From a virus: a stretch of 64,000 bases of DNA. The stretch lies in the IMG/VR virus record IMGVR_UViG_3300024262_000020, positions 1-64,000 of that record. The stretch is one strand, 5' to 3'. Of this stretch, positions 22,753 through 63,233 are shown piece by piece; positions within the stretch are counted from its first letter, which is position 1, and every line of letters starts with the position of its first letter. The notes below the pieces were generated by a model that was not told the origin of the DNA, did no database searches, and saw nothing but the letters and a program-made list of their open reading frames with translations. Made by a program: the position numbers and the translations under genes.

Positions 22753-23166
22753 TTATATGTTATATTTTTTTCCTGTTTTTCTAACTTGGTTATTATATTT
22801 AGATTCTTCTGATGGTTCATAAGAAAATTCCCAATCTTCACCTTCTTCATCATTACCTTTTATTTTTACTGAAACTTCTTCATCAATAATGTCATTCTCT
22901 AATAAAAATTCAAATATTTTTTGTAAAGAACTTTCAAAATCATCTATTATTATATCACATAAATCATCTTGAGTCATATATTCATCATCAAAACAACTTT
23001 GACCAATTTCTTCTATTATATCATCATTAATATCAAATCGTTCATCTAATAATCCATCCTTAATCGCATCTTGAATATAGAACCAAGTTGTTGGTGAATT
23101 TTCTCCATAATATAGAAGTATTGTTCCTTCTTCATCAGTATAACCTTCAAAAGTTTTAAATCTCAT
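22753..23166 (-). CDS. Tagged small acidic protein (MRFKTFEGY...KKYNI)
   Basis: The 137-residue protein is very acidic (many D/E clusters) and predicted soluble. It begins MRFKTFEGYTDEEG and ends GKKYNI, so it carries both terminal signatures shared by the accessory proteins. No known domain is recognised. The stop is two bases from the start of the DUF3008 fusion, so the four genes 24446 to 21917 probably form one minus-strand operon. Confidence 0.65.
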   Translation of the reverse strand: MRFKTFEGYTDEEGTILLYYGENSPTTWFYIQDAIKDGLLDERFDINDDIIEEIGQSCFDDEYMTQDDLCDIIIDDFESSLQKIFEFLLENDIIDEEVSVKIKGNDEEGEDWEFSYEPSEESKYNNQVRKTGKKYNI

Positions 23167-23172
23167 TTTTCT

Positions 23173-23544
23173 TTATTTATTTTTCATTACTTGTTTTAAC
23201 TTATTAAGTCCATAGAAATAATCTATAATTCTACATTTTAATACTCCCATTGTTGTTTGATTAAAAGGTGTTGTTTGATGTGATCTTTTTAACATTGCAG
23301 TTAAATAAATGATTTGTCCTCTTTTAACTTCACCAACAGATATAGCGGTATCAACCGTTATATTTTCTTCAATTTTATTTATAACACTCTCATCTTTAAT
23401 TATATCTATAATAGCTTCAATTTCAACAGGACCTTTAATAGGAATAAATTCTCCATCTTCTGTTTCTTCTAATGCTAAAATACCATCAGCAAGAGGTTTC
23501 AATTCGTCTTTTTTCTCAAAAGTATTAAATTTTTGTATTTTCAT
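23173..23544 (-). CDS. Small protein with MKxxKFxTFE start
   Basis: The 123-residue protein begins MKIQKFNTFEKKDE, matching the N-terminal signature, but ends VMKNK without the KYN[L/I] tail. The middle (IKGPVEIEAIIDI and a strand-rich segment before FYGLNKLK) suggests a small mixed fold. It lies between two proteins that carry both signatures. Function unknown. Confidence 0.6.
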   Translation of the reverse strand: MKIQKFNTFEKKDELKPLADGILALEETEDGEFIPIKGPVEIEAIIDIIKDESVINKIEENITVDTAISVGEVKRGQIIYLTAMLKRSHQTTPFNQTTMGVLKCRIIDYFYGLNKLKQVMKNK

Positions 23545-23967
23545 TTATATGTTATATTTTCTTAATTCTTTATTTATTGGTTTGTATTCGTCAATAATTA
23601 CTTCTATTACTTCATCTTCATAGCCTTTAAATCCAGGATTTTCATTCGGACTCATATTATCTATTGGGAAATTTTCAATCCATAATCCACCCTCACCAGA
23701 AAACCAAACAGTATATCTATCCGAATTATCAATTAATATTGATGCATAAGGACCTTGATACATATCAAACCCTTTAATATCGATAATCTCAAATGGTATT
23801 TCTTCATCTTTAAGTGAATTTTGAATAAGTGTTAATCTTTTTTCCATATCTTTTATCCAATTTGATTCTTCACTATCATCATCAGGATTATCTTTAACAT
23901 ATTCCCAATCTACATCTCTTGACCATTCGCCAGTTTCAAATAATTTATATGTTTTTAAAAATTTCAA
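23545..23967 (-). CDS. Tagged small protein (MKFLKTYKLFE...RKYNI), TTG start
   Basis: The 140-residue protein appears to start at TTG (23965-23967), immediately overlapping the TGA of the upstream gene. The resulting MKFLKTYKLFETGE fits the N-terminal signature exactly, which supports this start. It ends ELRKYNI with codons AAA TAT AAC ATA. The body has aromatic strands (DMYQGPYASILID, YTVWFSGEGGLWIENFP) typical of a small beta-rich domain. No family recognised. Confidence 0.6.
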   Translation of the reverse strand: MKFLKTYKLFETGEWSRDVDWEYVKDNPDDDSEESNWIKDMEKRLTLIQNSLKDEEIPFEIIDIKGFDMYQGPYASILIDNSDRYTVWFSGEGGLWIENFPIDNMSPNENPGFKGYEDEVIEVIIDEYKPINKELRKYNI

Positions 23968-24446
23968 TTTATTTTATAACTTTTTTCAATATAATTTTGA
24001 TATTTCATTTTCATTTTATCTATCAATTTATCATCAGTAAAATTAGGATTATCGAGATTATATACTATGTCATCATTTATTTTTATTCTAATATTATTTT
24101 CATTTTTATTATCATGAACAGATAATTTGCCTTCAATAATATCAAAATTAGATAACTCAATTGTTATCTTAGTCTTATATATTAAATTATAATTTTTAAA
24201 ATCTCTTTTATTATAGTAACCTTCAAGTTTTTTGACCCTTAAATTCTTTGGTCTGTTGCGTTGTTTGTATATTATGAATGAGAATTCGTTAATTATTTTA
24301 TTTGTGAACTCTTGAACATCATTTTCAATATTATTTTCAATTTCTAACTTCATATTTTCATTTAAGTTTTTATGTATATTTCTATTTTTACTCAGTTTCT
24401 CGTTATCAATATCTTCATTTACAAATAAATTAAATTTTATCAACAT
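23964..24446 (-). CDS. Tagged small basic protein
   Basis: The 160-residue protein begins MLIKFNLFVNEDIDNE, similar to the start of the VWA protein at 57787 (MLIKFKRYQQ). It ends YIEKSYKIN, a weak variant of the KYN[L/I] tail. It is rich in Asn and Lys, with a strand-rich C-terminal half. It is the first gene of the minus-strand group, downstream of the palindromic divergent promoter region at 24465-24502. Function unknown. Confidence 0.55.
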   Translation of the reverse strand: MLIKFNLFVNEDIDNEKLSKNRNIHKNLNENMKLEIENNIENDVQEFTNKIINEFSFIIYKQRNRPKNLRVKKLEGYYNKRDFKNYNLIYKTKITIELSNFDIIEGKLSVHDNKNENNIRIKINDDIVYNLDNPNFTDDKLIDKMKMKYQNYIEKSYKIN

Positions 24447-30748: not shown

Positions 30749-30939
30749 AGACCGAAAATCTTCAAAATTTATTAAAAGGGTTAGAAACGGCACATTATAA
30801 TACTGATTATATAATAAGTGAAGTTGAAAAAAATGGTGGTATCGTTTCTTCATTTGAGAAGAAAATTATTGATTATCAGATAGATATATCATTGATAAGA
30901 ATGGAACTAAATAGAAGATTATGGAAAGAATCGACATAA
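30712..30939 (+). CDS. Small helical hypothetical protein
   Basis: The 75-residue, mostly helical protein (KFYEELKTENLQNLLKGLET, then a charged helix ending RMELNRRLWKES) overlaps both neighbours by 20-40 bases. Heptad-like spacing in the second half suggests a coiled coil. No homologue recognised. Confidence 0.45.
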   Translation: MGKNTIKFYEELKTENLQNLLKGLETAHYNTDYIISEVEKNGGIVSSFEKKIIDYQIDISLIRMELNRRLWKEST

Positions 30940-31424
30940 ATAAGAATTATAATTCATATGAATTATCGAAGATAAAGCATACTAATAGGAATGAGATTGG
31001 TGACTTACCTATACATGAAGTAAGAGTAATTAAGTATGTTGTGTTGCTTTCATATTATCCATTCAATGAACAAAAATGGAAAATATTTAAATCATTAAGT
31101 AAAAATCAAAAAATGGGTATGTTAAATAGACATGTGCTTAGTGTTGCTCGCCAATTAGGTGTTTCTGATATTTTACTCAAAAAGGCAAAAGAAATAACTA
31201 AAGATTTAGCATCATCAACAAAAAGAGCAAAAAGAACAACCATTGGAAATATTCTCAAACCAAATTTTTATAAAGAACAGGAAGAAAGATATAGGAGAAA
31301 ATTAGAAGAATATTATACATTAATTCTTGATATTATAATGGAAGAAACAAGTAAAAGAATGAATGTTAAATATTTAAGAAAAAAGAAATTAGATGAAATA
31401 ATCCAATCAGGTACACAAGAATAA
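30921..31424 (+). CDS. Hypothetical protein with RKKKLDEI tail
   Basis: The 167-residue protein is basic and helical. RHVLSVARQLGVSDILLKKA could be a helix-turn-helix-like segment, but this is not certain. It ends NVKYLRKKKLDEIIQSGTQE, which contains the RKxKLxxI signature shared by several accessory proteins. It is the last gene before the structured RNA at 31425-31590. Confidence 0.45.
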   Translation: MERIDINKNYNSYELSKIKHTNRNEIGDLPIHEVRVIKYVVLLSYYPFNEQKWKIFKSLSKNQKMGMLNRHVLSVARQLGVSDILLKKAKEITKDLASSTKRAKRTTIGNILKPNFYKEQEERYRRKLEEYYTLILDIIMEETSKRMNVKYLRKKKLDEIIQSGTQE

Positions 31425-48736: not shown

Positions 48737-48741
48737 ATTTG

Positions 48742-48827: not shown

Positions 48828-48896
48828 ATACACAGAATACTATTTGGTTTCAAATTAAAAGTTTGAGTTTTTGTAGTTTGCTGTTAGTATTCTTTG

Positions 48897-48982
48897 CGGA
48901 GAGCATCGGAGTCGAACCGAATACAGTTTCCCGTACACTTTGCTTAGCAGGCAAGCCCTATCACCGTTTAGGTTTACTCTCC
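48897..48982 (-). tRNA. tRNA-Ser(GCT)
   Basis: Acceptor GGAGAGT/GCTCTCC, anticodon loop CTGCTAA, long variable arm, T-loop TTCGACT, G73. Its 5' part overlaps the last codons of the HNH endonuclease gene; that gene's TGA falls in the D-arm. Confidence 0.85.
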
Positions 48983-49692
48983 ATATTATTTTCGTATTTT
49001 TTTAACCATTTTCTTATTGTATTATCACTTACACCATATTTTTTACCAGTTTTTGTAAAATTCGTTTTTTCTATATCGTTTAGCAATTGTTCATAAGATG
49101 GTCTATTTTTCACCTTTCTTTGTTTTATATTGTGACAATCAAAACACATTTCATTTTTTTTTAAAATTTTTTTACCACATTGACATCGATTAATTTCTTG
49201 TAATTTTTTTACTTTTTTTACCTTTACATTCCTTTTTTTACTTGCGTATGTGTCAGTTTGTGTGTGGCAATTTGGACATAAAAAACACAAATTTTCAATT
49301 CTATTATCATTATTTATCCCATTTTTGTGTTCTAATTGTAATGACAATTTTTCATTCATCCATTCACCTATATTTTTACATTTTTCGCATTTATATTCAA
49401 TTAAATTTTGTTTAATTATTCTTGCTTTTAACCGTTGTCTTGAATATGTTGAATTTTCAACAAAAACTTTTGAATTTTCAAATGCTGCTTGATATCCGCC
49501 ACTTCCGTAGTGATTATATTTTGGGATTTCTATATTGTTATTTTGACAATAATTTTTAAAAGTTTGATATCCACCACTACCATTTGTATTATATCCTATT
49601 TTATTTAAGACTTCTCTTAATGATTTCGATTCATTTAAAAGATTTTCAATATTCTCAACTCCAAAAATTTCTATTTTATTCATTTTATTCAT
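48961..49692 (-). CDS. HNH homing endonuclease
   Basis: I use the ATG at 49690-49692 (MNKMNKIEIFG) because TATATATACAATAAA lies just before it within the longer frame. Motifs: CEKCKNIGEW (about 111-120), LQLEHKNGINNDNRIENLCF (about 128-147, the HNH core) and LCPNCHTQTDT (about 148-158), so two Cys pairs flank the H-N-H. A CxC/CxxC knuckle and a C-terminal helix-turn-helix (GVSDNTIRKWLKKY) follow. The gene ends ESKPKR inside tRNA-Ser(GCT). It is likely a mobile element of the tRNA array. Confidence 0.9.
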   Translation of the reverse strand: MNKMNKIEIFGVENIENLLNESKSLREVLNKIGYNTNGSGGYQTFKNYCQNNNIEIPKYNHYGSGGYQAAFENSKVFVENSTYSRQRLKARIIKQNLIEYKCEKCKNIGEWMNEKLSLQLEHKNGINNDNRIENLCFLCPNCHTQTDTYASKKRNVKVKKVKKLQEINRCQCGKKILKKNEMCFDCHNIKQRKVKNRPSYEQLLNDIEKTNFTKTGKKYGVSDNTIRKWLKKYENNMESKPKR

Positions 49693-49738
49693 CTTTTTAT
49701 TGTATATATAAAAATTTGAACCCATTTTTTAGTTTTGA

Positions 49739-49812
49739 TGGCACGCCTACCAAGATTCGAACTCGGACCAGGACTTTTGGAGAGTCACATGCTACCGTTA
49801 CACCATAGACGT
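49739..49812 (-). tRNA. tRNA-Trp(CCA)
   Basis: Acceptor ACGTCTA/TAGGCGT, anticodon loop CTCCAAA, T-arm CCGAG-TTCGAAT-CTTGG, G73 and encoded CCA. Confidence 0.85.
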
Positions 49813-49824
49813 ATTTTGTTCTTG

Positions 49825-49897
49825 TCGGTTAGGTGAGACTCGAACTCACTATCATCGCATTAAAAGTGCGAGGCTTGACCTGTTAAGCTGCTAACCG
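49825..49897 (-). tRNA. tRNA-Lys(TTT)
   Basis: Acceptor CGGTTAG/CTAACCG, anticodon arm TCGCA-CTTTTAA-TGCGA, T-arm GTGAG-TTCGAGT-CTCAC, A73, no CCA. Confidence 0.9.
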
Positions 49898-49900
49898 TGT

Positions 49901-49966
49901 TGTCTGCTTCAATTTATCATAGCCAAGGATAATAAATTGTCTTAATTGGTTCCCGCCAAACAGACA
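49901..49966 (-). other. Non-canonical 66-base closed RNA element
   Basis: TGTCTG/CAGACA closes an element with hairpins TTGG/CCAA and a long CAATTTAT/ATAAATTG hairpin. It has no T-loop. A second 66-base element lies at 50494-50559. Size and closing stem recall a tRNA without a T-arm. Confidence 0.35.
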
Positions 49967-49976
49967 TAGTTTTGAG

Positions 49977-50052
49977 TGGAACCTACCAGAGTTGAACTGG
50001 TGCCTCTGGTTTTTCAGACCAGTGTACGAACGACCACCTATACGAAGGTTCC
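49977..50052 (-). tRNA. tRNA-Phe(GAA)
   Basis: Acceptor GGAACCT/AGGTTCC, anticodon arm CTGGT-CTGAAAA-ACCAG, T-arm CCAG-TTCAACT-CTGG, A73. Confidence 0.85.
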
Positions 50053-50065
50053 ATAAAAACTTTAC

Positions 50066-50160
50066 AGAATACGGACTCATTTCTGAGTTTTGAGGAATTG
50101 AACCCCTATAACAAAATTTCAGTTTGTGTTTTACCATTTGGTGTTTGCTGAAAGTATTCT
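50066..50160 (-). tRNA. Cloverleaf-like tRNA-like RNA (undetermined)
   Basis: AGAATAC/GTATTCT forms a seven-pair acceptor-like stem. Inside are TTTCAG/CTGAAA, TTTTG/CAAAA (with a TTCAATT loop segment) and ACTCA/TGAGT arms. An ACAAA-CTGAAAT-TTTGT anticodon-like arm is an alternative fold. It is not a standard tRNA. Confidence 0.35.
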
Positions 50161-50171
50161 TTAAAAGTTTG

Positions 50172-50255
50172 TCCGCCTGGGAGGATTCGAACCCCCGTTG
50201 TTGTTTCCAACCCTGATTAAAAGTCAGGAGCATAAGCCAACTCTGCCACAGACGG
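50172..50255 (-). tRNA. tRNA with TTT anticodon and long variable arm
   Basis: Acceptor CCGTCTG/CAGGCGG, D-stem GCA/TGC, anticodon arm CCTGA-CTTTTAA-TCAGG, an added variable hairpin (GTTG-GAAA-CAAC), T-arm GGGGG-TTCGAAT-CCTCC, A73. Class II form with a lysine anticodon is unusual. Confidence 0.75.
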
Positions 50256-50259
50256 ATAT

Positions 50260-50306
50260 TGGTAGATTTGCATTTTCTTCCGAAGAATGTGGGAATGATA
50301 CTACCA
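50260..50306 (-). other. Short closed hairpin element between tRNAs
   Basis: TGGTAG/CTACCA closes a 47-base spacer with an in-loop TTCTTC/GAAGAA hairpin. Probably an RNA-processing spacer or another tRNA-like remnant. Confidence 0.3.
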
Positions 50307-50318
50307 TAAAACCACAAG

Positions 50319-50393
50319 TGCGCCTGGTAGGATTCGAACCTACAACCCACAGGGTAAAAACCTGTTGCTCTGCGCTTTTGGAGCTACAGACGC
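50319..50393 (-). tRNA. tRNA-Lys(TTT), second copy
   Basis: Acceptor GCGTCTG/CAGGCGC, D-stem GCTC/GAGC, anticodon arm ACAGG-TTTTTAC-CCTGT, T-arm GTAGG-TTCGAAT-CCTAC, A73. Confidence 0.85.
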
Positions 50394-50408
50394 TTGTTAT
50401 TCAATTTG

Positions 50409-50490
50409 TGCGCCCAGTAGGAATCGAACCTACGTTGATGTTTCCATCCCTGATTAAGAGTCAGGAGCATAGCCGCTCTGCCACGGACGC
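50409..50490 (-). tRNA. tRNA with CTT anticodon and long variable arm
   Basis: Acceptor GCGTCCG/TGGGCGC, anticodon arm CCTGA-CTCTTAA-TCAGG, variable hairpin GATG-GAAA-CATC, T-arm GTAGG-TTCGATT-CCTAC, A73. A sister of the tRNA at 50172 with a changed anticodon. Confidence 0.75.
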
Positions 50491-50493
50491 ATA

Positions 50494-50559
50494 TTGTTAG
50501 ACACAGGTACTCCCGAACAGGGGAATTGATTTTTATAGCCACTTCGGGACGACTAACAA
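50494..50559 (-). other. Non-canonical 66-base closed RNA element
   Basis: TTGTTAG/CTAACAA closes an element whose main inner helix is TCCCGAA/TTCGGGA. Same length as the element at 49901-49966. No T-loop. Confidence 0.4.
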
Positions 50560-50566
50560 TTTTTTG

Positions 50567-50638
50567 GGTGTAACCTCGGTATTGATCCGAGTTCTCTAGA
50601 TTCACAGTCTAGCACATCACCTTAATGCTTGAAACACC
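50567..50638 (-). tRNA. tRNA-His(GTG)
   Basis: Extra G-1 opposite C73, acceptor GTGTTTC/GTTACAC with two T-T mismatches, anticodon arm CTAGA-CTGTGAA-TCTAG, T-arm CTCGG-ATCAATA-CCGAG (non-T54 loop). Confidence 0.8.
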
Positions 50639-50643
50639 ATATG

Positions 50644-50669
50644 AATTCGCAATTCGTGAATTGCGAATT
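50644..50669. repeat. Perfect 26-base palindrome
   Basis: AATTCGCAATTC (50644-50655) and GAATTGCGAATT (50658-50669) are exact complements around two bases. It lies between two RNA genes and could be a cleavage or protein-binding site. Confidence 0.6.
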
Positions 50670-50672
50670 ATG

Positions 50673-50759
50673 CACACCCGTAGGGATTCGAACCCTCACC
50701 TATATTGCTACTCAAAAGAACGGGGTTGGAGCCCGCAGGTCACGCCAATGAGCGGATGT
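50673..50759 (-). tRNA. tRNA-like gene, anticodon uncertain (CCA by position)
   Basis: Acceptor ACATCCG/CGGGTGT and T-arm GAGGG-TTCGAAT-CCCTA are present, with an arm GCGGG-CTCCAAC-CCCGT. The D-region is odd and about 20 bases separate the arm from the T-stem. A Trp reading is possible but uncertain. Confidence 0.45.
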
Positions 50760-50763
50760 ATTT

Positions 50764-50839
50764 TGGTGGAGAACTCAGGTTACGCTCCTGATCCTCTGGT
50801 TTTTCAGACCAGTGCTTCTACTAAGTTAGCTTCTTCTCC
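50764..50839 (-). tRNA. tRNA-Phe(GAA)-like with altered T-loop
   Basis: Acceptor GGAGAAG/GTTCTCC, anticodon arm CTGGT-CTGAAAA-ACCAG identical to the first tRNA-Phe, T-arm TCAGG-AGCGTAA-CCTGA (loop lacks TTC), A73 and encoded CCA. It abuts the GIY-YIG gene stop. Confidence 0.6.
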
Positions 50840-53028: not shown

Positions 53029-53529
53029 TTATATATTATTAATTGTTTCTAATTTCTTTTTTCTTATTAATTTAATATTTGTTTCTTCAGTGATTTTTTC
53101 ACCATTTTGTTTTTTAAATTCTACCTTAATTTTATAAGGTTTATTATTTATTAGAAATAATGACACATAGAATCCACCTGTGGAACTTGTGGAAGGATTA
53201 TATGTGAAAGTGGATTTTTCACATATACCACCTATTAAACTAAGTACACAAGATTTTAAATTTTTGATAGTTGGTGTTGTTTTTCTATCTTGCCAAGTCC
53301 AATTAACTGATTTCATATGATTCTCAACTGTTTCAAAATCAAATCTTTCTATAATATCCTCAAGTAAATCCCTTATATTGACTTTATCTATAAGTTTCCA
53401 ATATTCTATTTCATATAATGGTTCTAAATATGTTTCCCAGTAATTGTGCCAATTTTCATTTCTATCTTTATCAGTATATTTTTCTTGATAATCTTTAAAA
53501 GAAATTACATTTTTATCGTCAATTTTCAT
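53029..53529 (-). CDS. Hypothetical protein, paralogue of 30049-30402
   Basis: The 166-residue protein repeats the domain of 30049-30402: ERFDFETVENHMKSVNWTW, PTIKNLKSCVLSL and STSSTGGF. It adds an N-terminal extension and ends LIRKKKLETINNI, the RKxKLxxI tail. The matching domain order in two distant genes suggests duplication. Function unknown. Confidence 0.55.
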   Translation of the reverse strand: MKIDDKNVISFKDYQEKYTDKDRNENWHNYWETYLEPLYEIEYWKLIDKVNIRDLLEDIIERFDFETVENHMKSVNWTWQDRKTTPTIKNLKSCVLSLIGGICEKSTFTYNPSTSSTGGFYVSLFLINNKPYKIKVEFKKQNGEKITEETNIKLIRKKKLETINNI

Positions 53530-53531
53530 TT

Positions 53532-54040: not shown

Positions 54041-54916
54041 ATGAAAATTATAAGAGAATTTAAAGATTTTGGTAGAAAAATATATGAAACTAATGAAGAA
54101 TGTCCTTTTCTTTTTACAGAATCGTCAACTGATGAAGATTTCCATCAAGCAATATTAGATGTTGGTTATAATTGGTGGCAAGGTAGTGATGTAAAATCAT
54201 ATAGTGAAATGGTTTATAAAATGGAGAAAGAATTTGGATATAAATTTGCGTTATTGATATTGTTAGGTAAATATAATCAACAGGTTGGTAATGGTGGACA
54301 TATTCAATATTTTGATAATGGTTATGCATCTGCGGGTAGTAGTGGATATGGTGGTAATCATAAAGATATTGAATTACATGAACAAATGATTGAATGGTTT
54401 AAGAAAGCAGGATTAGATGAAACTGAATTAGGTAAAAATATATTTGTTGTTATGGAGGATTCTGGTGATGTATTTGGACATTTAAGTGAGGGTGATGAAA
54501 GATGTGATGAATGTAATGGAGATGGTGAAGTTGAAGAAGATTGTTATGAATGTGATCGTGGTGTGATTATGGATAGTTGTGGTAATTGTAGTGGTGAAGG
54601 TGAATATGAAGGTGATGATGGTGAAATTGAAGATTGTCCTGAATGTAATGGTGAAGGTGAAATAGAACAAGATTGTCCTGAATGTGGTGGAGATGGTACT
54701 GTTTATAATTCTTGTGAAGAATGTGATGGTAGTGGTTATATAAATCCAGCAGATAGTTATTCAGGTGAGTTAGATAGATTAGATAGTAAATATTATAAGA
54801 TTGATGGTTGGGAAGATCATTTAAATAAGTTTGCAAAGGATATCATTATTGAAAAATATCCTGAAGAATGGGAAAAATTTAAAATAAGAAGAAGTGCAAA
54901 TAAATATAATTTATGA
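54041..54916 (+). CDS. Tagged DnaJ-type zinc-knuckle protein with DUF4375-like domain
   Basis: I start at ATG 54041 (MKIIREFKDFGRKIYE). Residues about 55-105 (FALLILLGKYNQQVGNGGHI followed by QYFDNGY) resemble DUF4375/DMP19. Residues about 150-240 hold repeats such as CDECNGDGEVEEDCYEC, CPECNGEGEIEQDCPECGG and CEECDGSGY, like the CxxCxGxG zinc modules of DnaJ, without a J-domain. It ends ANKYNL, so both terminal signatures are present. It may bind unfolded proteins or zinc; function not known. Its stop overlaps the next start (ATGA). Confidence 0.6.
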   Translation: MKIIREFKDFGRKIYETNEECPFLFTESSTDEDFHQAILDVGYNWWQGSDVKSYSEMVYKMEKEFGYKFALLILLGKYNQQVGNGGHIQYFDNGYASAGSSGYGGNHKDIELHEQMIEWFKKAGLDETELGKNIFVVMEDSGDVFGHLSEGDERCDECNGDGEVEEDCYECDRGVIMDSCGNCSGEGEYEGDDGEIEDCPECNGEGEIEQDCPECGGDGTVYNSCEECDGSGYINPADSYSGELDRLDSKYYKIDGWEDHLNKFAKDIIIEKYPEEWEKFKIRRSANKYNL

Positions 54917-55281
54917 AATATTTAAAATTATTTGAAGATAAAAAATATAGTAAAAATCTATATTATGAGAGTGAATTAGATTCCATATTAAAGGATGACT
55001 GGAAAGAATTGTCAATAACAAGGGACACTATAAATTTTGAAGTTGGTGAAGGTTATGATAAAGGATACAAGTATTCTGTATTTTTTGAAGGTCAATGTTC
55101 TGATAATGATATATTTTTGGAAGAAACTGCAATTCCTAAATTTATCAAAAAATTCAAAGAGGAATTCCAGAAAAATCCAGAAAAATATTCTCATAATTTT
55201 AAAGTTGGTAGATTTAAACGTGATCCTAAATTTATGGGGGATTTATCTCATTTTAGAGAAACTGAAAAATACAATTTATAA
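54913..55281 (+). CDS. Tagged small protein (MKYLKLFED...EKYNL)
   Basis: The 122-residue protein begins MKYLKLFEDKKYSK and ends FRETEKYNL, the clearest two-ended example. Its tail uses TAC for Tyr whereas most others use TAT, so the tail is kept as protein rather than as DNA. The middle is a short strand-rich domain (INFEVGEGYDKGYKYSVFFE). No known family. Confidence 0.6.
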   Translation: MKYLKLFEDKKYSKNLYYESELDSILKDDWKELSITRDTINFEVGEGYDKGYKYSVFFEGQCSDNDIFLEETAIPKFIKKFKEEFQKNPEKYSHNFKVGRFKRDPKFMGDLSHFRETEKYNL

Positions 55282-56009
55282 TGGCTGAAAATAAACAAAA
55301 ATTACCCATAATAAAAAATAGAGAACAATTAAAGATGGTTATTGATGGCTTGAGTGATCAAGGTTTTGGATATTATGTTGGTGATTGGAAAGCACATGAA
55401 TATAAGGTGTCTAACTTAATTAATAAAAATAATACTCTTGGTATAGAAGAAGATAAATTTAAATCTAAGTTGAATGAATTGGTTTCTAATATGACAGATT
55501 ATGATGAAATTGATAAAACTATTAAGAATTTTTTCCAAAAATTTAAGCCAGATGATAAAATAAAAGAATTAATAAATCATTATTATTTAAAACCAGATGC
55601 ATCATGTAGAAAACCTTCATCATCACCAAGTAAAAAGGAAATTATAGATTGGGTTAAATTTAAAAGAAAGTATAATATAAAAGGTGAGCCTGATTTTGAT
55701 TGGTCTGCGGATGTGTATAATTTGGATAAGAATTTTGTTAAAGTAAATGATTATGATTCTAATTTTGATTTTGAAAAATTGTATAGATTATTATACAATG
55801 AAGAACCTAATGATTTTTCGTTGAAAAATCTTGGAGATTGGCAAGATTTGGGAAAAATCGAAATAAAGGTTTTTCAAAATGGAACAATCAATATTAAAGG
55901 TGATATTGATAAATTAAAATCTTATCTTTATAAGGAGATAAGAAATTTTGATTGTATTGTTTATTATAATAAGAAAAAGGAGATTAGAGAAAGACGAGAA
56001 AGAGATTAA
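55281..56009 (+). CDS. Hypothetical protein with DUF4942-like C-terminus
   Basis: The 242-residue protein starts MAENKQKLPIIKNREQLKMV and has a helical first half. The C-terminal 60 residues (LGKIEIKVFQNGTINIKG, then LKSYLYK) resemble a small phage/plasmid domain sometimes annotated DUF4942. It lacks both tag signatures although it sits between tagged genes. Function unknown. Confidence 0.45.
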   Translation: MAENKQKLPIIKNREQLKMVIDGLSDQGFGYYVGDWKAHEYKVSNLINKNNTLGIEEDKFKSKLNELVSNMTDYDEIDKTIKNFFQKFKPDDKIKELINHYYLKPDASCRKPSSSPSKKEIIDWVKFKRKYNIKGEPDFDWSADVYNLDKNFVKVNDYDSNFDFEKLYRLLYNEEPNDFSLKNLGDWQDLGKIEIKVFQNGTINIKGDIDKLKSYLYKEIRNFDCIVYYNKKKEIRERRERD

Positions 56010-56248
56010 AGGTTATATTTCTTTGATTCATACTCTAAATCAGTAATAAAATATTTAGAATCAAATGGCATTAAGTTATTACTTTCGGTTAGTATGATGT
56101 AACAAAGTCCAGATAACATTTCATCAGTTTCAAATTCTGAAAAAACTTCATATTTTTTACCTTTGATAATACCATGTTTCACAGAACTTTTACTTCTGCG
56201 TTCAACGATAGTTTCAATTGCCCATACATATTTTATATCTTTTTTCAT
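56006..56248 (-). CDS. Small protein with KKYNL tail
   Basis: The 80-residue protein (start MKKDIKYVWAIETIVERRSK) ends DLEYESKKYNL but has no MKxLKxFE start. Its tail codons are AAA TAT AAC CTT, different bases from the AAT TTA used elsewhere, supporting protein-level conservation. The host-type TATATTTGC box (56277-56285) precedes it, so it is probably early, unlike its neighbours. Confidence 0.55.
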   Translation of the reverse strand: MKKDIKYVWAIETIVERRSKSSVKHGIIKGKKYEVFSEFETDEMLSGLCYIILTESNNLMPFDSKYFITDLEYESKKYNL

Positions 56249-56347: not shown

Positions 56348-57772
56348 ATGAAAAAATTACAAAAATTTGAAGATTTCAAACTTAATGAAAATGTCTTCCA
56401 AGATATATGGAGAAAGACTGTGGAACTATATCAAAAGAAATTTAAAAACGGTGCTTGGTGGCGTTTATTGAAGTTTTTAATTCAAAAAAATGAATTACCA
56501 AAAGGTGTAGAAGTACATTTTGCTAATGGTATGAGCAATGAAGGTAAATTGAATGAAGAACTTGTTGAATTAACACATGTTGATCAAAATATTTCAAATG
56601 AAGATTCTGATGAGATTCGTGAAGCTGTTATTGATGCCTATAATTATAGAATAAGTCAAAATGATCATTCAGCTATCTTTCTTTGGGGAGCACCAGGTAT
56701 TGGTAAAACAGAGATTGTAATTGATACTGCTAAAGAATTGGGTCTTGATATTATTGTTTTTCACTTATCTCAGATTGAACCTACTGAATTTAGAGGCGTT
56801 CCAAAAATTGAAAACTTAGATAAAGAAGCCACACCAGGCGACACAAGTGGTGAAAGAACTGTAAATAAATTACCTGTTATTTTCCCTACTGATAATGGAG
56901 CAAATGGTAAAGGTGGTATTTTCTTTTTAGATGAGTTAAATAGAGCACCTAAAATGGTATTGTCTGCGGCACTTCCTTTATGTCTTGATGGTAAAATTGG
57001 TGATTATGCATTACCAAGTAAATGGATTATAATTGCTGCTGGTAATAGAAAAGAAGATATTGGTTTTGATGCTGTTGAAATTGAACCAGCATTAGCCAAC
57101 AGATTCCAACATATTAATTTTGTACCAACAGTTAAACGTTGGACAGAGTGGGCAGTATCTAAGAAATTTGTTGACCCTGACTTAATTGGATTCTTAAACT
57201 TCTACAAAGATTATTTCCATAGATTAGAATCTGATGATGGTTCATCAGCTTGGGCATCACCAAGAGCGTGGACTAAGGCATCACAATTTATTTATAGTTT
57301 AAATAAAGAATTTAAAGTTGATGAAAAAAAGAAAAGAAAAGTATATACTAGATTTGTAGGTACACAAGCCGCTGTCGCATTTATGGATTATCTTAAGTTG
57401 AAAGAGAAATTTAATGAAAGAGATGTTAAAGATGTATATGAAAAGGGTGTAAAAGCAAAACATCCACCAAAGAATTTAAATGAAGGTAGAGCCGCTATGT
57501 ATTCTATTGCTTTTTATAAGAAAGGCGAAAGATTAAAACCAGAAGAATTAAAGAATATTATAGCTTACGCATTAAGTCTTCCAAATTTTGAAACTAAAAC
57601 ATCATTACTTTCTTTTGTTAAATTAGCACATACCAATAAAGGTGTGACTTATTTGAAAGAAGAAGAACCTTACAAAACAATATGGTGGGAAGGTGTTAAA
57701 AAATGGTTTGAAGAAGTAAAAAGTTTAGGTAAAGAAGATGAATATAAAGATGGTATACCTGATAATATGTAA
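56348..57772 (+). CDS. MoxR-type AAA+ ATPase
   Basis: The 474-residue protein has Walker A GAPGIGKTEIV (about 115-125), Walker B GGIFFLDELNRAPK (about 189-202), sensor 1 IIAAGNRKED and an arginine finger region in ALANRFQH. This order is that of MoxR/RavA-type ATPases, which remodel partner VWA proteins. The N-terminus MKKLQKFEDFKLNENVF carries the MKxLKxFE signature, whereas the C-terminus (DGIPDNM) lacks KYNL. The partner gene follows after 14 bases. Confidence 0.85.
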   Translation: MKKLQKFEDFKLNENVFQDIWRKTVELYQKKFKNGAWWRLLKFLIQKNELPKGVEVHFANGMSNEGKLNEELVELTHVDQNISNEDSDEIREAVIDAYNYRISQNDHSAIFLWGAPGIGKTEIVIDTAKELGLDIIVFHLSQIEPTEFRGVPKIENLDKEATPGDTSGERTVNKLPVIFPTDNGANGKGGIFFLDELNRAPKMVLSAALPLCLDGKIGDYALPSKWIIIAAGNRKEDIGFDAVEIEPALANRFQHINFVPTVKRWTEWAVSKKFVDPDLIGFLNFYKDYFHRLESDDGSSAWASPRAWTKASQFIYSLNKEFKVDEKKKRKVYTRFVGTQAAVAFMDYLKLKEKFNERDVKDVYEKGVKAKHPPKNLNEGRAAMYSIAFYKKGERLKPEELKNIIAYALSLPNFETKTSLLSFVKLAHTNKGVTYLKEEEPYKTIWWEGVKKWFEEVKSLGKEDEYKDGIPDNM

Positions 57773-57786: not shown

Positions 57787-59202
57787 ATGTTAATAAAATT
57801 TAAAAGATATCAACAAATTATAAAGATTAATGAAATGATGCTTAGTGATAAGGCTGATAGAAAAGCCTTAACAATGATGAGAAAATGTTCATCTCAAATT
57901 GTTAATCATTTTGGTTTTTTTGCAGATTTACTTTTTAGTTTGAAAATAATGGAAGTTCCTAATGAATTTTGTGATACTATGTGTACCGATGGTAAGGCTA
58001 TTGGATATAGTGCAGATTTTGTAAATTCGTTGACAGAAGAAGAAGTAGTATTTGTTATTATTCATGAACTTATGCATAATGCTAATTTTCATTTTAATAG
58101 ACAAGGCGGTAGAGATGCTAAAGTTTGGAATTATGCTGCTGATTATGCTATTAATCTTTTAATTGATGATATGGCGAGGGAAATGAAGATATTATCAACA
58201 CCAAAAAAGATATTATTGGATCAAACCTATCGTGATATGGGCGCAGAACAGATATATGAATTAATAAAAAATGATCAAAAAGGTGGCGGTGGTGGCGGTC
58301 AAGGACAACCAGGACAAGGTAGTGGTAAACCACAACAAGGTCAAGGTGGTGGTCAAGGTGGAGATAATACTATCGGACAAGACATCAAGCCTGTTGGTTC
58401 TATTGAAAAAGTTGGTGAAGAAATTTTTAAAGGACAAGAAGGTGCTGGAAATCCAGATGTTGAAAATGCTAAAAGTGCTAGTGATTTAGAAAATGTATGG
58501 AAAAAAATTAGACAACAAGCATCAACAAGATCACAAGGTGTTGGTTCTGCTGGAATGGATAGATGGATTAAAAAGGCGAATAAGGCAAAGGTTAATTGGA
58601 AAACTGAATTGAAAAAATTTGTAAATAATGCAATGCAAGAATTAGATTATGGATTCTTTAATAAACGGTTTATTTATAAAGATATGTATTTACCTGGTCC
58701 TAAACAAGTCGATAAATCTATGTTTAAAGATGTTGTGATTGCTATTGATACTTCAGGTTCTATAACTCAGGATACGTTAGATAAATTTGGTGCGGAATTG
58801 TTAAAATTATTTGGACAATTTCAAATTGAACGTTGTTATGTAATCTGGTGTGATAGTACAATACCTGGTTGGAGTTCGTCTAGTAATACAAAAAATCCAC
58901 AAGGTGTACAAGTATTTCAACGAGTTGACAAAAGTTTCAAATTGAATAAATTGAAACCTCAAGGTGGTGGCGGTACAAGTTTTGTGCCACCGTTTGATTG
59001 GGTTCAACAAAATTTATTAAAGAAAGGTCGTCAACCAGCATTTTTTATATATTTTACAGATGCTTATGGCTCTGCACCAAGTTCTGGTCAATTTGGACTC
59101 AGACAATATATTAAGAGAGTAATGTGGATTGTTACGGATAATTTAGATGCTTCAAATTTAAAATTTGGTAAGAAAATTTACATTGATAAATTAGTTGATT
59201 AA
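57787..59202 (+). CDS. VWA-domain protein with zincin motif (MoxR partner)
   Basis: VFVIIHELMHNANFHFNRQ (about 87-105) gives the HExxH zinc-protease motif, as in the DUF2201 VWA-like peptidase group. A Gly/Gln-rich linker lies at about 158-195 and the C-terminal VWA domain has DVVIAIDTSGSIT (about 315-327, MIDAS) and GGGGTSFVPPF. The 471-residue length fits the pair with MoxR. It begins MLIKFKRYQQIIKINEM, similar to the 23964 gene start. The pair may form a nucleotide-driven protease or assembly complex. A terminator follows. Confidence 0.8.
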   Translation: MLIKFKRYQQIIKINEMMLSDKADRKALTMMRKCSSQIVNHFGFFADLLFSLKIMEVPNEFCDTMCTDGKAIGYSADFVNSLTEEEVVFVIIHELMHNANFHFNRQGGRDAKVWNYAADYAINLLIDDMAREMKILSTPKKILLDQTYRDMGAEQIYELIKNDQKGGGGGGQGQPGQGSGKPQQGQGGGQGGDNTIGQDIKPVGSIEKVGEEIFKGQEGAGNPDVENAKSASDLENVWKKIRQQASTRSQGVGSAGMDRWIKKANKAKVNWKTELKKFVNNAMQELDYGFFNKRFIYKDMYLPGPKQVDKSMFKDVVIAIDTSGSITQDTLDKFGAELLKLFGQFQIERCYVIWCDSTIPGWSSSSNTKNPQGVQVFQRVDKSFKLNKLKPQGGGGTSFVPPFDWVQQNLLKKGRQPAFFIYFTDAYGSAPSSGQFGLRQYIKRVMWIVTDNLDASNLKFGKKIYIDKLVD

Positions 59203-59225: not shown

Positions 59226-59254
59226 AACCTCATCAAAAATTGATGAGGTTTTTT
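59226..59254 (+). terminator. Intrinsic terminator after the VWA gene
   Basis: AACCTCATCAA (59226-59236) pairs with TTGATGAGGTT (59240-59250) around AAA and runs into T's. Confidence 0.85.
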
Positions 59255-59267
59255 AATATATATCAAT

Positions 59268-59681
59268 ATGAAAACATTAAAGACGTTTGAATCCTATGTT
59301 AATGATAAAAAGATTACAACAACTTATCAAACTACTACTCCTGAGAGTTTAGAAGATGGTGATTATGCTGAGAGTGGTTGGCGTGATGAAGAAGGTGAGT
59401 CTATGTTACCTGATGAGTATGATGATGAAGATATAACTGTGATAGATAAGGCTGTTGAATTTTTAAAAAATCATTATGCATATGAACCTTCATCGAGTGA
59501 TTTCCATACAGATATTTGGTATTCTGCTTCACCTGATGAAAATTATGTGACAGGTGAAAATACGTATTATTCTTATCATTTAGAAGGATTTACAGAAGAA
59601 GAAGAATATGAGATTTGGAAAATAATGACAAATTACGAAGAAAAACAACTTAAAAAAACAGTTGATAAATATAATTTATAA
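59268..59681 (+). CDS. Tagged small protein (MKTLKTFESY...DKYNL)
   Basis: The 137-residue protein starts MKTLKTFESYVNDKK and ends KKTVDKYNL. It is acidic and Tyr-rich in the middle (DDEDITVIDKAVEFLKNHYA). A TATATATC motif just after the terminator is its likely promoter. First of four consecutive tagged genes with starts and stops spaced or overlapped by a few bases. No known family. Confidence 0.65.
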   Translation: MKTLKTFESYVNDKKITTTYQTTTPESLEDGDYAESGWRDEEGESMLPDEYDDEDITVIDKAVEFLKNHYAYEPSSSDFHTDIWYSASPDENYVTGENTYYSYHLEGFTEEEEYEIWKIMTNYEEKQLKKTVDKYNL

Positions 59682-59684: not shown

Positions 59685-60350
59685 ATGAAAACATTAAAAA
59701 CATTTGAAGGATATATTGATGATAAGATAGTTGCTTTGAAAAAACTTAAAAAGTTTATAGACTTTATGGAAAAGTATAAATTGAAGTATTTTACTATTGG
59801 TAATACAGATCCAGATGAAAATTATCAATTTGAATATATTGAAAAAACTGATGATGGTTATGATATAGAATATATAGATTATACACAAGGTGAAGAAAAA
59901 GTGGGATTCCGTGGCAAAAAATATAAATCAAAAGAGATAAAATGTGGGTTATTAGAGTTACCAAATAAAGTTGTTGATGCACTTATGAAGGCTTGTGGTG
60001 ATGTAAGATTTACAATAGAATATCATCTAGAAATGGTCGCAGGTGATATTGATGATTTTATTAACATATTAAAAATACATAAAGAGCCTATTAAATTTAC
60101 AACTTGGATATTTGGACTAATTCTTGAAAATGATGAACAGGAAAAAGGAAATTCATTTAAATTCCAAGATATACTTTTTTCAACTCATCCAGAGGCATAT
60201 AAAGCTTTTATTGATGAGTGTTTTGATATTCGTGGAGATTATGAACCTTTAAAAGTGAACCCTCGAATTTTGAAAAAATATAAGAACTTGTTAGGTGAGT
60301 ATTATCACAAGAAAGAGGTTGAATATGAAGCAGGAAAATATAATTTATAA
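59685..60350 (+). CDS. Tagged small protein (MKTLKTFEGY...GKYNL)
   Basis: The 221-residue protein shares its first eight residues exactly with the previous gene (MKTLKTFE) and ends EYEAGKYNL. Its body is unrelated, with an acidic/aromatic middle (YQFEYIEKTDDGYDIEYIDY). Identical starts on unrelated bodies argue that the start is a tag. Function unknown. Confidence 0.65.
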   Translation: MKTLKTFEGYIDDKIVALKKLKKFIDFMEKYKLKYFTIGNTDPDENYQFEYIEKTDDGYDIEYIDYTQGEEKVGFRGKKYKSKEIKCGLLELPNKVVDALMKACGDVRFTIEYHLEMVAGDIDDFINILKIHKEPIKFTTWIFGLILENDEQEKGNSFKFQDILFSTHPEAYKAFIDECFDIRGDYEPLKVNPRILKKYKNLLGEYYHKKEVEYEAGKYNL

Positions 60351-60901
60351 TGAAACATTTAAAACTATTTGAAGAACATAAAGGGCATTGTGATGTTGTT
60401 AAAAAATATATGAAATATTTTTCATCAAAGAGAATGAACAAATTGGCTTGGTGGATTGATCCTTTTCATTTACCAAGAATAAATGAAATGCTTTGTGAAA
60501 GTATATCATATTATGATAATGATTATCATGGAGACGGTTATCAATTTAGTCCTTGGTCATCAAGTGATTCTTATATTCGTAATGTGCCGAAAGAAAATGT
60601 ACCAAAATCTATTCGAGAAATTATGGATTTGGCTGATTGTAATTATATTACATGGTGTACGACTGATCATAATTATGGGTATTTAATGGGATATAGTAAA
60701 AAGGGTATGAGTTATAGTAAATCATTAGATCCAGATGATATAGATGACGATGAATTTGCACAAAAAATATTAGAAACATTGATTGATAATAGTTTTATTA
60801 TAGATGAAGATGAATCTAAGAGGCTAGAACACGAAAGAGCACATAAAGAAGAAATGTTACGAAAAGAAGCAGAAAAAGAAGGAGAAAAGTATAATTTATA
60901 A
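60350..60901 (+). CDS. Tagged small protein (MKHLKLFEEH...EKYNL)
   Basis: The 183-residue protein begins MKHLKLFEEHKGHCD and ends KEGEKYNL. It contains YHGDGYQFSPWSSSDSYIRN and a charged C-terminal helix (RLEHERAHKEEMLRKEAEK). Its start overlaps the previous stop by one base. No family recognised. Confidence 0.65.
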   Translation: MKHLKLFEEHKGHCDVVKKYMKYFSSKRMNKLAWWIDPFHLPRINEMLCESISYYDNDYHGDGYQFSPWSSSDSYIRNVPKENVPKSIREIMDLADCNYITWCTTDHNYGYLMGYSKKGMSYSKSLDPDDIDDDEFAQKILETLIDNSFIIDEDESKRLEHERAHKEEMLRKEAEKEGEKYNL

Positions 60902-61662
60902 TGAAGAAATTATTTGAATTTAGAGTATTTGATATAATGAAGGATGATGAAAATCGTGAATTCCTTAATAAAGTTAAAGATGAAAATCCTGAACTTTATG
61001 ATAGGTTTATGTCTTTAGTTGGTAATAAAGGATTAGAAATTGCTAAACAGAAATATTTACAATATGACCCCGAATGGATAAAAGAACAAAAGAGAAAGAA
61101 AACAAAAGAAGAAAAACAAAGAGAAAAAGAAGAATCAAAAGATAGATTTAGACAAAGATTTTTAGATAAGTATCGTGAAGCGGTGACCAATATTAATATA
61201 CATTTGGCTAGGACTCCATTAAGAGATGTAATTTATATTATAAGAGAGGAAAAAAATTTAAAAAGATGGAAAAAACAATATAAAACATTATTCAAAGATG
61301 TTGATAGTTCTCTACATGATATGGAAAATGAACCTATTGATTCTGTTAAAATAATACCACCATATTATAGATATCGTTCTGAATTTGGTGATGAACATAT
61401 AGAAATTAAACAATATGTAAATTTAGATGAAAATAAGAAAAAAATCAAAGATGTAAAATTTACTATTATATTTCATTTTGAACCAGAAGGGTTTGATGAA
61501 TTTGAAGCGGATAGAGATATTAAAATAGGTCAGTTAACAACATATATCAGGTTAAATTTAAATGAATTAAAGGAACTCTTAGAAAAATTTAAATATTATA
61601 TGAGTGATGAGTATAGAAAAAATTGGGAGATAGAACAAGAAACAGAAAAATATAATTTATAA
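60901..61662 (+). CDS. Tagged coiled-coil protein (MKKLFEFRVF...EKYNL)
   Basis: The 253-residue protein begins MKKLFEFRVFDIMKDDENRE and ends IEQETEKYNL. A strongly charged helix (QKRKKTKEEKQREKEESKDR, about 60-80) suggests a coiled coil. The C-terminal half contains strands (VKFTIIFHFEPEGFDEFEAD). Function unknown. Confidence 0.6.
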   Translation: MKKLFEFRVFDIMKDDENREFLNKVKDENPELYDRFMSLVGNKGLEIAKQKYLQYDPEWIKEQKRKKTKEEKQREKEESKDRFRQRFLDKYREAVTNINIHLARTPLRDVIYIIREEKNLKRWKKQYKTLFKDVDSSLHDMENEPIDSVKIIPPYYRYRSEFGDEHIEIKQYVNLDENKKKIKDVKFTIIFHFEPEGFDEFEADRDIKIGQLTTYIRLNLNELKELLEKFKYYMSDEYRKNWEIEQETEKYNL

Positions 61663-62574
61663 ATGGAATCGATTGTACAATTATTAATATCAATGATAGT
61701 AGCATATGAAGAATATGGTGATGCTATTGGATATACAAAAGAGGAATTAGATAATTTTATTCAACAATATGAATTGGTTAAATTGAATTGGAACGAATTA
61801 GGTGCATTAGTATTGTATCATTATAAGTATATTACGAAAGAACAATTTGCTAAAGTCATGGAATTAGAAGTTGATGAAGATGGTGAATTTTGGATGGAGT
61901 TTAATGATTTTGAAGATGCATTACCAAGTGATTTTGATTTTGAAGCAAAAGTTTTAAATGGTGATATGTGGGAAGATTGGCAACGTTCAGATTATTATGA
62001 TTATGATTTTAGTTTTAATGATTTTTCAGAGGAAACATTAAAATCTGTGATAGAATATTGTGACAAAAATGATTGTTCAATAGATGTTGATGATGAAGAT
62101 ATTTTTCTTACAAAAGATAATTTGAGAATAGAAAATGGTAATATTTATTTTGGTGATGAAGATTTAGATGAGCATATGAAAGATGGTGGTATGGAAGATT
62201 TAAAATTACAAATACAATTTGGTATATCTGATGCACATGATAATGCAGAATCTGATGCTGTATATAATGCGGTTAATAAAAATTTTAAAGAGGGTATTGG
62301 TTCTTATAAGTGGGTATCTACAAAAAAGGGAGAAAAAAATGTTGAAATGTTATGGGTTAAAGTTGAGGTAGATTTAGATGATGTTATAGAAAAATTAAAA
62401 GATGATTATACTTATAGAGATGAAACTGATTATTCATCTGGCTCTTATGGTAATATGTATTATGTTTTAAGGGAATTTGATTTTATAAATATGAAAAAAC
62501 CAAATTTTGATTATTTATATTCTTCACCAACAACAAAAGATACTGATGAGTGTGTTAGAAACCGATTATATTAA
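61663..62574 (+). CDS. Hypothetical acidic protein
   Basis: The 303-residue protein begins MESIVQLLISMIVAYEEYGD and does not carry either tag. It is very acidic with many D/E runs, has one hydrophobic N-terminal helix that is probably not a membrane anchor, and a middle of DFDFEAKVLNGDMWEDWQ. It sits in the tagged-gene series, so it may be a partner or a gene that lost its tags. Confidence 0.5.
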   Translation: MESIVQLLISMIVAYEEYGDAIGYTKEELDNFIQQYELVKLNWNELGALVLYHYKYITKEQFAKVMELEVDEDGEFWMEFNDFEDALPSDFDFEAKVLNGDMWEDWQRSDYYDYDFSFNDFSEETLKSVIEYCDKNDCSIDVDDEDIFLTKDNLRIENGNIYFGDEDLDEHMKDGGMEDLKLQIQFGISDAHDNAESDAVYNAVNKNFKEGIGSYKWVSTKKGEKNVEMLWVKVEVDLDDVIEKLKDDYTYRDETDYSSGSYGNMYYVLREFDFINMKKPNFDYLYSSPTTKDTDECVRNRLY

Positions 62575-62591
62575 AAAATTAATAAAGCATT

Positions 62592-63233
62592 ATGGTAATA
62601 ACAAAATATAAATTATTTGAACAAAAATTAGAAACAACTGAGGAATTATCAAAATTGTTAGATATGGCAATTGCAACTGATGATTTGGAACTCGTTAAAT
62701 TTTTTGTAAGTAAAGGCGCAAGATCAACTGATGACACATTAGAAAATGCATCTTATGATGAAGATATTTTCAAATATCTATTAGACAATAATTATAAACT
62801 TAAACTAAGTGTAAGTAGATTGAATGATACTGGTGTACAAAAGACTTTGATAGATTATAATAAATATAACTACATATTGGAGAATCTTGGATATTTTAAT
62901 AAGCAATTAAAGAGTGATAAAAAATATAAAGAATCTGTTGATAATTTCTTTAAAAATCCTGGTAAATCTAAGGAAAGTCTTTTATTCTACCAACATGCAT
63001 TTGAATGGGCAAAAGATGATAAAGAGTTGTTTTTATATTTTTTAGAAGAAGGTGGTGATTATAAAAGTCTTAAACGTGAAATTTTGAAAGAACCAGAAGC
63101 ACAAAAAGCCTTGATAGATTTTGGTAAGGATTTATTTGTTAAAGATGTAGGATTTAGTCCAGAGTTGAGAGATGATCCTAAATATAAAAAGTGGCTTGAA
63201 ATGGGTGAAGAATTTGATAAATATAATATGTAA
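62592..63233 (+). CDS. Tagged ankyrin-like repeat protein
   Basis: The 213-residue protein begins MVITKYKLFEQKLETTEE and ends EEFDKYNM, a Met variant of the tail. Residues 15-75 look like ankyrin repeats (LLDMAIATDDLELVKFFVSK, then GARSTDDTLENASYDEDIFK and YLLDNNYKL). Ankyrin repeats bind proteins. The stop is followed after one base by an opposing glycosyltransferase gene. Confidence 0.55.
   Translation: MVITKYKLFEQKLETTEELSKLLDMAIATDDLELVKFFVSKGARSTDDTLENASYDEDIFKYLLDNNYKLKLSVSRLNDTGVQKTLIDYNKYNYILENLGYFNKQLKSDKKYKESVDNFFKNPGKSKESLLFYQHAFEWAKDDKELFLYFLEEGGDYKSLKREILKEPEAQKALIDFGKDLFVKDVGFSPELRDDPKYKKWLEMGEEFDKYNM

What the first reader, a model, noticed from the sequence alone, without database searches (positions are those of the whole stretch)
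22753..63233. Two-ended tagged protein family: MKxLKxFE start and KYN[L/I/M] end
Many otherwise unrelated small proteins share short ends. Starts: 22753 (MRFKTFEG), 23545 (MKFLKTYKLFE), 54041, 54913 (MKYLKLFED), 59268 and 59685 (both MKTLKTFE), 60350 (MKHLKLFEE), 60901, 62592, with variants at 23173, 23964 and 56348. Ends: KYNL at 54041, 54913, 59268, 59685, 60350, 60901 and 56006; KYNI at 22753 and 23545; KYNM at 62592. Codons at the tail vary (AAA/AAG, TAT/TAC, AAT/AAC, TTA/CTT/ATA/ATG) while the peptide is kept, so selection acts on protein. Bodies are unrelated. The N-terminal signature resembles the T4 head-targeting sequence (MKTYQEFIAE), so these may be packaged internal proteins; the C-terminal tag has no match I know. 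This is a candidate sorting or delivery system.
Basis: partly seen in the sequence, partly recalled or inferred. Interest (0 to 1): 0.87.

Follow-up and report, generated by a model that had tools for sequence, protein, structure and literature searches.

The report
Phage proteins with two address tags
Giant phages related to the largest phage known put a short head-packaging address, like that of phage T4, on the front of dozens of unrelated proteins, and many of these carry a second short address on the tail end whose letters differ from one phage lineage to the next; this suggests a large, undescribed system for loading and directing proteins delivered into bacteria.

Summary
The window is part of an 87.6-kb fragment of a huge T4-type phage of the Mahaphage group. 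Start motif: T4's capsid-targeting core (Y4xxF7-I8xE10) sits at the N-terminus of 89 clade proteins against 3-5 in control windows. The clade's prohead protease is fused to a scaffold with 10-13 copies of YSEYIAE, close to T4's YQEFIAE. Residues after the start-motif Glu are enriched for S/N, and start-tagged genes sit behind the promoter-like motif found before head genes. I read it as a capsid-targeting sequence (CTS) for virion-packaged, injected proteins. End motif: K[FY]N[LI] ends 10-19% of ORFs in three related records, strongly co-occurs with the start motif, and becomes K[ML]GLL on homologous proteins of another lineage (21% of its ORFs). It is therefore a lineage-specific peptide address, probably read by a phage-encoded partner in the infected cell; that partner and step are inferred. 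Two more tags turned up: [IL]RKxKLxxI, which avoids the CTS and the late motif, and DPYGEExW in ~91 ORFs of the 735-kb genome. No packaging or binding was shown; no prior description was found.

The parts
22753..23166 (-). Doubly tagged protein, 137 aa (MRFKTFEG...KKYNI)
23173..23544 (-). Start tag only, 123 aa (MKIQKFNTFE)
23545..23967 (-). Doubly tagged, 140 aa (MKFLKTYKLFE...RKYNI); homologue in G005 ends SKKFNI (47% identity)
23964..24446 (-). Start tag only, T4 style (MLIKFNLFVNE|D), 160 aa
48226..48612 (-). Start tag only, T4 style (MFTNFDNFINE|W), 128 aa
54010..54020 (+). TTTAATATATA, putative late promoter element before 54041
   Evidence: 6 in window against 1.3 expected
54041..54916 (+). 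Doubly tagged DnaJ-type zinc-finger-like protein (MKIIREFKDF...NKYNL)
54913..55281 (+). Doubly tagged, 122 aa (MKYLKLFED...EKYNL); orthologues start MLDKYLDFINE (G005) and MLKTYTSFITKINE (G004) and end SKFNL and ERYNM
56006..56248 (-). End tag only, 80 aa (...SKKYNL)
56348..57772 (+). Start tag only: AAA ATPase (MKKLQKFEDFKLNE|N)
   Evidence: PF07728 5e-7
57787..59202 (+). DUF2201 metallopeptidase/VWA-like partner of the AAA ATPase; weak start-tag likeness (MLIKFKRYQQIIKINE)
   Evidence: PF13203 1e-36
59252..59262 (+). TTTAATATATA, putative late promoter element before 59268
59268..59681 (+). Doubly tagged, 137 aa (MKTLKTFES...DKYNL)
59685..60350 (+). Doubly tagged, 221 aa (MKTLKTFEG...GKYNL)
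60350..60901 (+). Doubly tagged, 183 aa (MKHLKLFEE...EKYNL)
60901..61662 (+). Doubly tagged, 253 aa (MKKLFEFRVF...EKYNL)
62592..63233 (+). Doubly tagged, 213 aa (MVITKYKLFE...DKYNM); homologue in G002 ends KNLGIL

Best explanation
The start motif is a capsid-targeting sequence (CTS) of the T4 kind. Late in infection each tagged protein docks by its short N-terminal peptide onto the prohead scaffold, whose tandem YSEYIAE repeats the peptide imitates; it is locked in the head, probably trimmed after the Glu by the gp21-like protease fused to that scaffold, and delivered with the DNA. The end motif is a second, retained address: the end of a helix plus a lineage-specific tip (K[FY]N[LI] or K[ML]GLL) bound by one common, probably phage-encoded partner, more likely after delivery in the infected cell than during packaging. 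Shown: motif enrichment, co-occurrence, scaffold repeats, protease family, promoter association, tag switching on homologous proteins. Inferred: packaging, cleavage, delivery, the partner and its place of action.
For: T4 CTS core at the N-terminus 89 vs 3-5 in control windows, starting at residues 4-7, and not enriched in PTm1/PAU/MaF61. T4 residues 4 and 7 target, 8 and 10 allow cleavage, and gp21 cuts after L/I-x-E (PMC9026906). Relatives encode gp21-like protease, gp23-like capsid protein and gp20-like portal; the protease-scaffold has 10-13 YSEYIAE-type repeats and the capsid propeptide holds SLNE|N. S/N after the tag's Glu enriched 3-6x. Operon-leading tagged genes have the late motif 86/180 vs 211/1178, p=6e-17. 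Co-occurrence p=1.7e-60 in G005 and 4.6e-67 in loci fetched with the start motif. Homologous LRR proteins end KMGLY in G002 and KKFNL/KKFNI in G005, same slot. In one cargo family the tags are the best-conserved columns and lie outside the confident fold. One start-tagged protein is an ADP-ribosyltransferase, the class of T4's injected Alt.
Against: No proteomics, binding or cleavage data. The common MKxLKxFE form lacks L/I at P3 of the T4 cleavage rule. Start-tagged proteins include PPK2, NUDIX and poly(A)-polymerase-like enzymes not known from phage heads. Head genes are not on the 87.6-kb fragment and were read from relatives. The end-tag partner was not found: the one family shared by the end-tagged genomes I compared (own 74755) also has a distant homologue in end-tag-free W01 and is missing from G003, which ends a few proteins in KKYNI.
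Confidence: 0.62

Rival explanations
1. The end tag is a second packaging or tethering signal inside the head (shell, internal body or portal), like an encapsulin cargo-loading peptide, acting together with the start tag.
For: Strong co-occurrence with the start tag; late-type operons for doubly tagged genes, 73/94 in G005.
Against: In G002, 71 end-tag-only genes are mostly outside late-type operons (10/71, background level); start-tag-only proteins abound in W01 and W02.
Confidence: 0.25
2. The end tag is a degradation signal that limits the life of small host-takeover proteins, read by a host or phage protease.
For: Hydrophobic C-terminal tips are typical of bacterial C-degrons (own knowledge); the tagged proteins are small accessory proteins.
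Against: Strict K, aromatic or Met/Leu, Asn/Gly pattern with a conserved small residue upstream is tighter than usual; letters change with phage lineage on homologous proteins, which favours a phage-encoded reader.
Confidence: 0.13
3. The start tag sorts proteins to a compartment in the infected cell, not to the virion.
For: Enzyme-like cargo; no virion data.
Against: T4 CTS register, scaffold repeats, protease-type Glu context, late-type promoter.
Confidence: 0.12
4. The tagged proteins are one old paralogous family whose bodies diverged beyond recognition while the ends stayed.
For: One cluster of 100 start-tagged proteins exists and is expanded in tandem.
Against: Cargo folds are unrelated: ankyrin, LRR, chromo/SH3-like barrel, ADP-ribosyltransferase, AAA; 371 body clusters among 661 start-tagged proteins.
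Confidence: 0.06
5. The ends are DNA-level elements (the -10-like TATAAT in AAATATAATTTATAA, recombination boxes), with the peptide incidental.
For: TTA used in 24/24 Leu of G004 end tags and GGA over-used in G002.
Against: 63 different 12-mers among 103 G002 tags; in frame at ORF ends; switch to K[ML]GLL on homologous bodies.
Confidence: 0.03

Closest known systems
T4 capsid-targeting sequence (CTS) of internal proteins IPI-III and Alt
   Same: About 10-residue N-terminal peptide, hydrophobic/aromatic 4 and 7, Glu site downstream, unrelated mature bodies, gp21-type protease and scaffold in the phage, an ADP-ribosyltransferase among the cargo
   Different: Up to about a fifth of the ORFs instead of four or so proteins; dominant form MKxLKxFE/MKYLKTYNE lacks the L/I at P3; scaffold fused to protease and made of CTS-like repeats; second C-terminal tag
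Ejection proteins of phiKZ/SPN3US-type giant phages
   Same: Many head-packaged proteins cleaved after Glu by a gp21-type protease (PMC5694885, PMC9026906)
   Different: Propeptides there are mostly long and not a common short peptide; no end tag described there
Encapsulin cargo-loading peptides (own knowledge)
   Same: Short C-terminal peptide on unrelated cargo, HK97-fold shell
   Different: Different sequence; no evidence that this end tag binds a shell
Bacterial C-terminal degrons such as ssrA (own knowledge)
   Same: Short C-terminal peptide on many proteins
   Different: Genome-encoded, no ALAA-type end, lineage-specific letters

Membership tests
T4-type capsid-targeting sequence | N-terminal peptide with hydrophobic/aromatic residues at 4 and 7 | tested here: met
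   T4 rule from PMC9026906
T4-type capsid-targeting sequence | L/I-x-E cleavage site at the end of the peptide | tested here: inconclusive
   T4-like subset (69 proteins) has it; MKxLKxFE subset has E with enriched S/N after it but no L/I at P3
T4-type capsid-targeting sequence | Phage encodes gp21-type protease, scaffold, gp23-type capsid protein, gp20-type portal | tested here: met
   In relatives G003, G004, W01-W04; not on the 87.6-kb fragment itself
T4-type capsid-targeting sequence | Same peptide on unrelated mature proteins | tested here: met
T4-type capsid-targeting sequence | Late expression | tested here: inconclusive
   Association with a promoter-like motif found before portal/protease genes and not before the DnaB genes; no expression data
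T4-type capsid-targeting sequence | Protein in the virion and peptide removed | not testable with these tools
   needs virion mass spectrometry
Encapsulin cargo-loading peptide | C-terminal peptide binds the inner face of an HK97-fold shell | not testable with these tools
   no complex prediction or binding data
ssrA-type degron | C-terminal ALAA-like end added by tmRNA | tested here: not met
   end is genome-encoded KYNL/KFNI/MGLL
Type IX secretion C-terminal domain | Long folded C-terminal domain plus N-terminal signal peptide | tested here: not met
   conserved end is 4-8 residues, no signal peptide seen at the tagged N-termini by eye

The most novel reading that the evidence does not exclude
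Huge phages of this clade run a proteome-wide addressing code: a shared T4-like head-packaging tag plus lineage-specific second peptide addresses (K[FY]N[LI], K[ML]GLL, DPYGEExW) and a separate tag class ([IL]RKxKLxxI) on proteins that carry neither the packaging tag nor the late promoter motif, each address read by a dedicated phage receptor that sends delivered or newly made proteins to a common site.
Probability: 0.4. Interest if true: 0.95.

Novelty: new variant of a known kind. Interest (0 to 1): 0.87.

Why it matters
It offers a sequence-readable list of which proteins a huge, uncultured phage probably carries in its head and injects, which is otherwise unknown for the largest phages. 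The lineage-specific end tags point to an unknown receptor system, and the tags could mark cargo for programmable delivery into Bacteroidota in the laboratory.

Tried and rejected
Promoter/DNA-element origin of KYNL: TATAAT is common (374 in the record) and the tag is peptide-level. Host-type TTG-TAnnTTTG promoters for tagged genes: rare (3/180). End-tag receptor by phylogenetic profile: 144 proteins had a homologue in another end-tagged genome and none in W01/W02/G007; only one family (own 74755) was in all four end-tagged genomes, but a profile search found a diverged W01 homologue. Relatives through the AAA ATPase: no hit. tblastn of a tagged body against named phages: no hit. Own head genes: not on the fragment. 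Outgroups PTm1, PAU, MaF61: no start-tag enrichment. Foldseek of one cargo model: only weak chromo/SH3-like matches, E >= 0.09. Pfam on DPYGEE-tagged proteins: no common domain. Literature searches and two papers read gave no earlier description of these tags; the held library is partial, and the query for otherwise unrelated phage proteins with a conserved C-terminus returned nothing.

Full report
1. What was checked. Every coordinate in the finding was re-read. The start motif is on 12 of 121 ORFs under a strict pattern (expected 0.06) and KYN[LIM] ends 12 ORFs. The window is part of an 87,615-base virus record; the rest of the record adds two doubly tagged genes (77031, 77360) and further start-tagged ones (67067, 67349, 72946, 74755, 77854).

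2. What phage it is. The terminase (37765-39885) is closest, among named records, to LR756501 (735 kb), LR745206, LR756502 and LR756504 (about 640 kb), then Tenacibaculum phage PTm1 and Sphingomonas phage PAU. Those sizes are the four largest genomes of Al-Shayeb et al. 2020 (PMC7162821), all in the Mahaphage clade with predicted Bacteroidetes hosts. I fetched W01 (735 kb), W02 (635 kb), IMG/VR contigs G002 (348 kb), G003 (159), G004 (155), G005 (330), part of G007, and outgroups. ORFs were called as longest non-overlapping ATG/GTG/TTG frames, so some starts are too far upstream; that under-counts start tags.

3. The start tag. A T4-CTS core ([YF]xx[FYW][ILVM]xE) lies at the N-terminus of 89 clade proteins against 3-5 in four internal control windows, starting at residues 4-7; in the outgroups 1 against 0-2. 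The dominant forms are MKYLKTFE, MKYLKTYNE, MITNFKLFE and MKKFNEFINES. Some are nearly the T4 sequence, e.g. MLKYQEFINEAK and MKTYKEFINESK. The review of T4 (PMC9026906) assigns targeting to residues 4 and 7 and cleavage to 8 and 10. Orthologues exchange the two styles: own 54913 starts MKYLKLFED, its G005 orthologue MLDKYLDFINEN, so they are probably equivalent.

4. The packaging machinery. Relatives encode gp20-, gp21- and gp23-like proteins. The gp21-like protease is fused to a scaffold with 10-13 repeats of the type YSEYIAE|N, matching T4's YQEFIAE|A. The capsid protein propeptide holds SLNE|N or QMNE|N. After the Glu of start tags, Ser is enriched 3.8-6.3x and Asn 3.1-3.7x. This supports docking on the scaffold and cutting by the same protease; neither was shown.

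5. Promoter. A TTTAATATATA-type motif with a gene start typically about 19-20 nt downstream precedes portal and protease genes and not the DnaB genes. Operon-leading start-tagged genes have it in 86/180 cases, others in 211/1178 (p=6e-17). At operon level 73/94 doubly tagged genes of G005 are in motif-led operons against 44/379 others. The motif was partly chosen from these genes, so treat it as association, not proof of late timing.

6. The end tag. K[FY]N[LI] ends 9.9% (own), 12.0% (G004) and 18.7% (G005) of ORFs; G002 uses K[ML]GLL on 21.3%. Consensus: small residue, any, Lys, aromatic or Met/Leu, Asn or Gly, Leu/Ile. Asn/Gly before a hydrophobic residue suggests a helix C-cap (inference); in the AlphaFold model of one cargo family the last helix runs to residue 109 of 111 with falling confidence, and the N-tag is unfolded. 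Within that family the tags are the most conserved columns.

7. Tag switching. Homologous proteins end KKFNL (G005) and KKMGLY (G002), 49% identity; likewise KKFNI/NKMGLM, NKFNL/SKLGLL, DKYNM/KNLGIL; the LRR alignment shows it in register. Concerted change across about 100 proteins argues for one co-evolving reader, probably phage-encoded.

8. Where the end tag acts. Start and end co-occur strongly, yet W01 and W02 have start tags and no such end, and G002 has 71 end-only genes with a background rate of the late motif (10/71). I therefore favour a role in the infected cell over a role in packaging (0.55 versus 0.25). Cargo includes ankyrin, LRR, DnaJ zinc-finger, ADP-ribosyltransferase and other domains, fitting host-takeover proteins.

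9. Related tags. A second C-terminal motif, [IL]R[KD]xK[LI]xx[IL], is on 87/909 W02 and 54/551 G005 ORFs (control about 3 each), 15 in G004 and 9 in own; it is nearly exclusive with the start tag, has unrelated bodies (85 families of 87 in W02) and is essentially never in motif-led operons (0/71, 0/40, 0/13, 1/9). The 735-kb genome has DPYGEExW in about 91 ORFs (105 copies, 48 different DNA spellings), near the N-terminus, at the C-terminus or internal, associated with the start tag (p=6e-12).

10. Verdict. Real, non-random and unusually extensive. Start tag: works like, and probably is, a T4-type CTS, with the cleavage rule only partly met and packaging untested. End tag: new to me and not found in the searched literature, function inferred.

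Noticed in passing
W01 (LR756501.1), e.g. 474651-476336, 176207, 505983: DPYGEE[NDE]W occurs in about 91 ORFs (105 copies) of the 735-kb genome on unrelated bodies, after the start tag, at the C-terminus or internally: a further lineage-specific tag.
   Followed up: partly
window 30921-31424, 41864-42130, 43057-43293, 43290-43604, 43607-44071, 53029-53529; W02 and G005 genome-wide: A second C-terminal motif [IL]RKxKLxxI on unrelated small proteins, nearly exclusive with the start tag and the late-type promoter.
   Followed up: partly
record 71241-71720 (outside window); W01 11314, 48028, 145891, 552409, 619760; G004 120493: Short diverged copies of the phage's own prohead protease, portal, capsid or scaffold, several carrying DPYGEE or the RKxKLxxI end: tagged fragments of head genes, meaning unknown.
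   Followed up: partly
window 40728-40800: ARAGORN calls a tRNA with CUA anticodon (named Pyl); TAG ends only 2 of 126 selected ORFs of the record, so amber suppression is possible.
   Followed up: no
window 48645-50839: Nine further tRNA genes, including four for Lys and two for Phe, residues common in the tags and in this AT-rich genome.
   Followed up: no
window 295-21040: Run of about 26 ORFs; several look like glycosyltransferase and sugar-metabolism genes by eye, not annotated here.
   Followed up: no
loci L004-L050: In many relatives the terminase match starts at residue 115 with the first part elsewhere, suggesting an intron or inserted endonuclease gene; the window's copy is intact.
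   Followed up: no
G002 214000-285000: Long arrays of about 100-aa proteins that carry the K[ML]GLL end without the start tag.
   Followed up: partly
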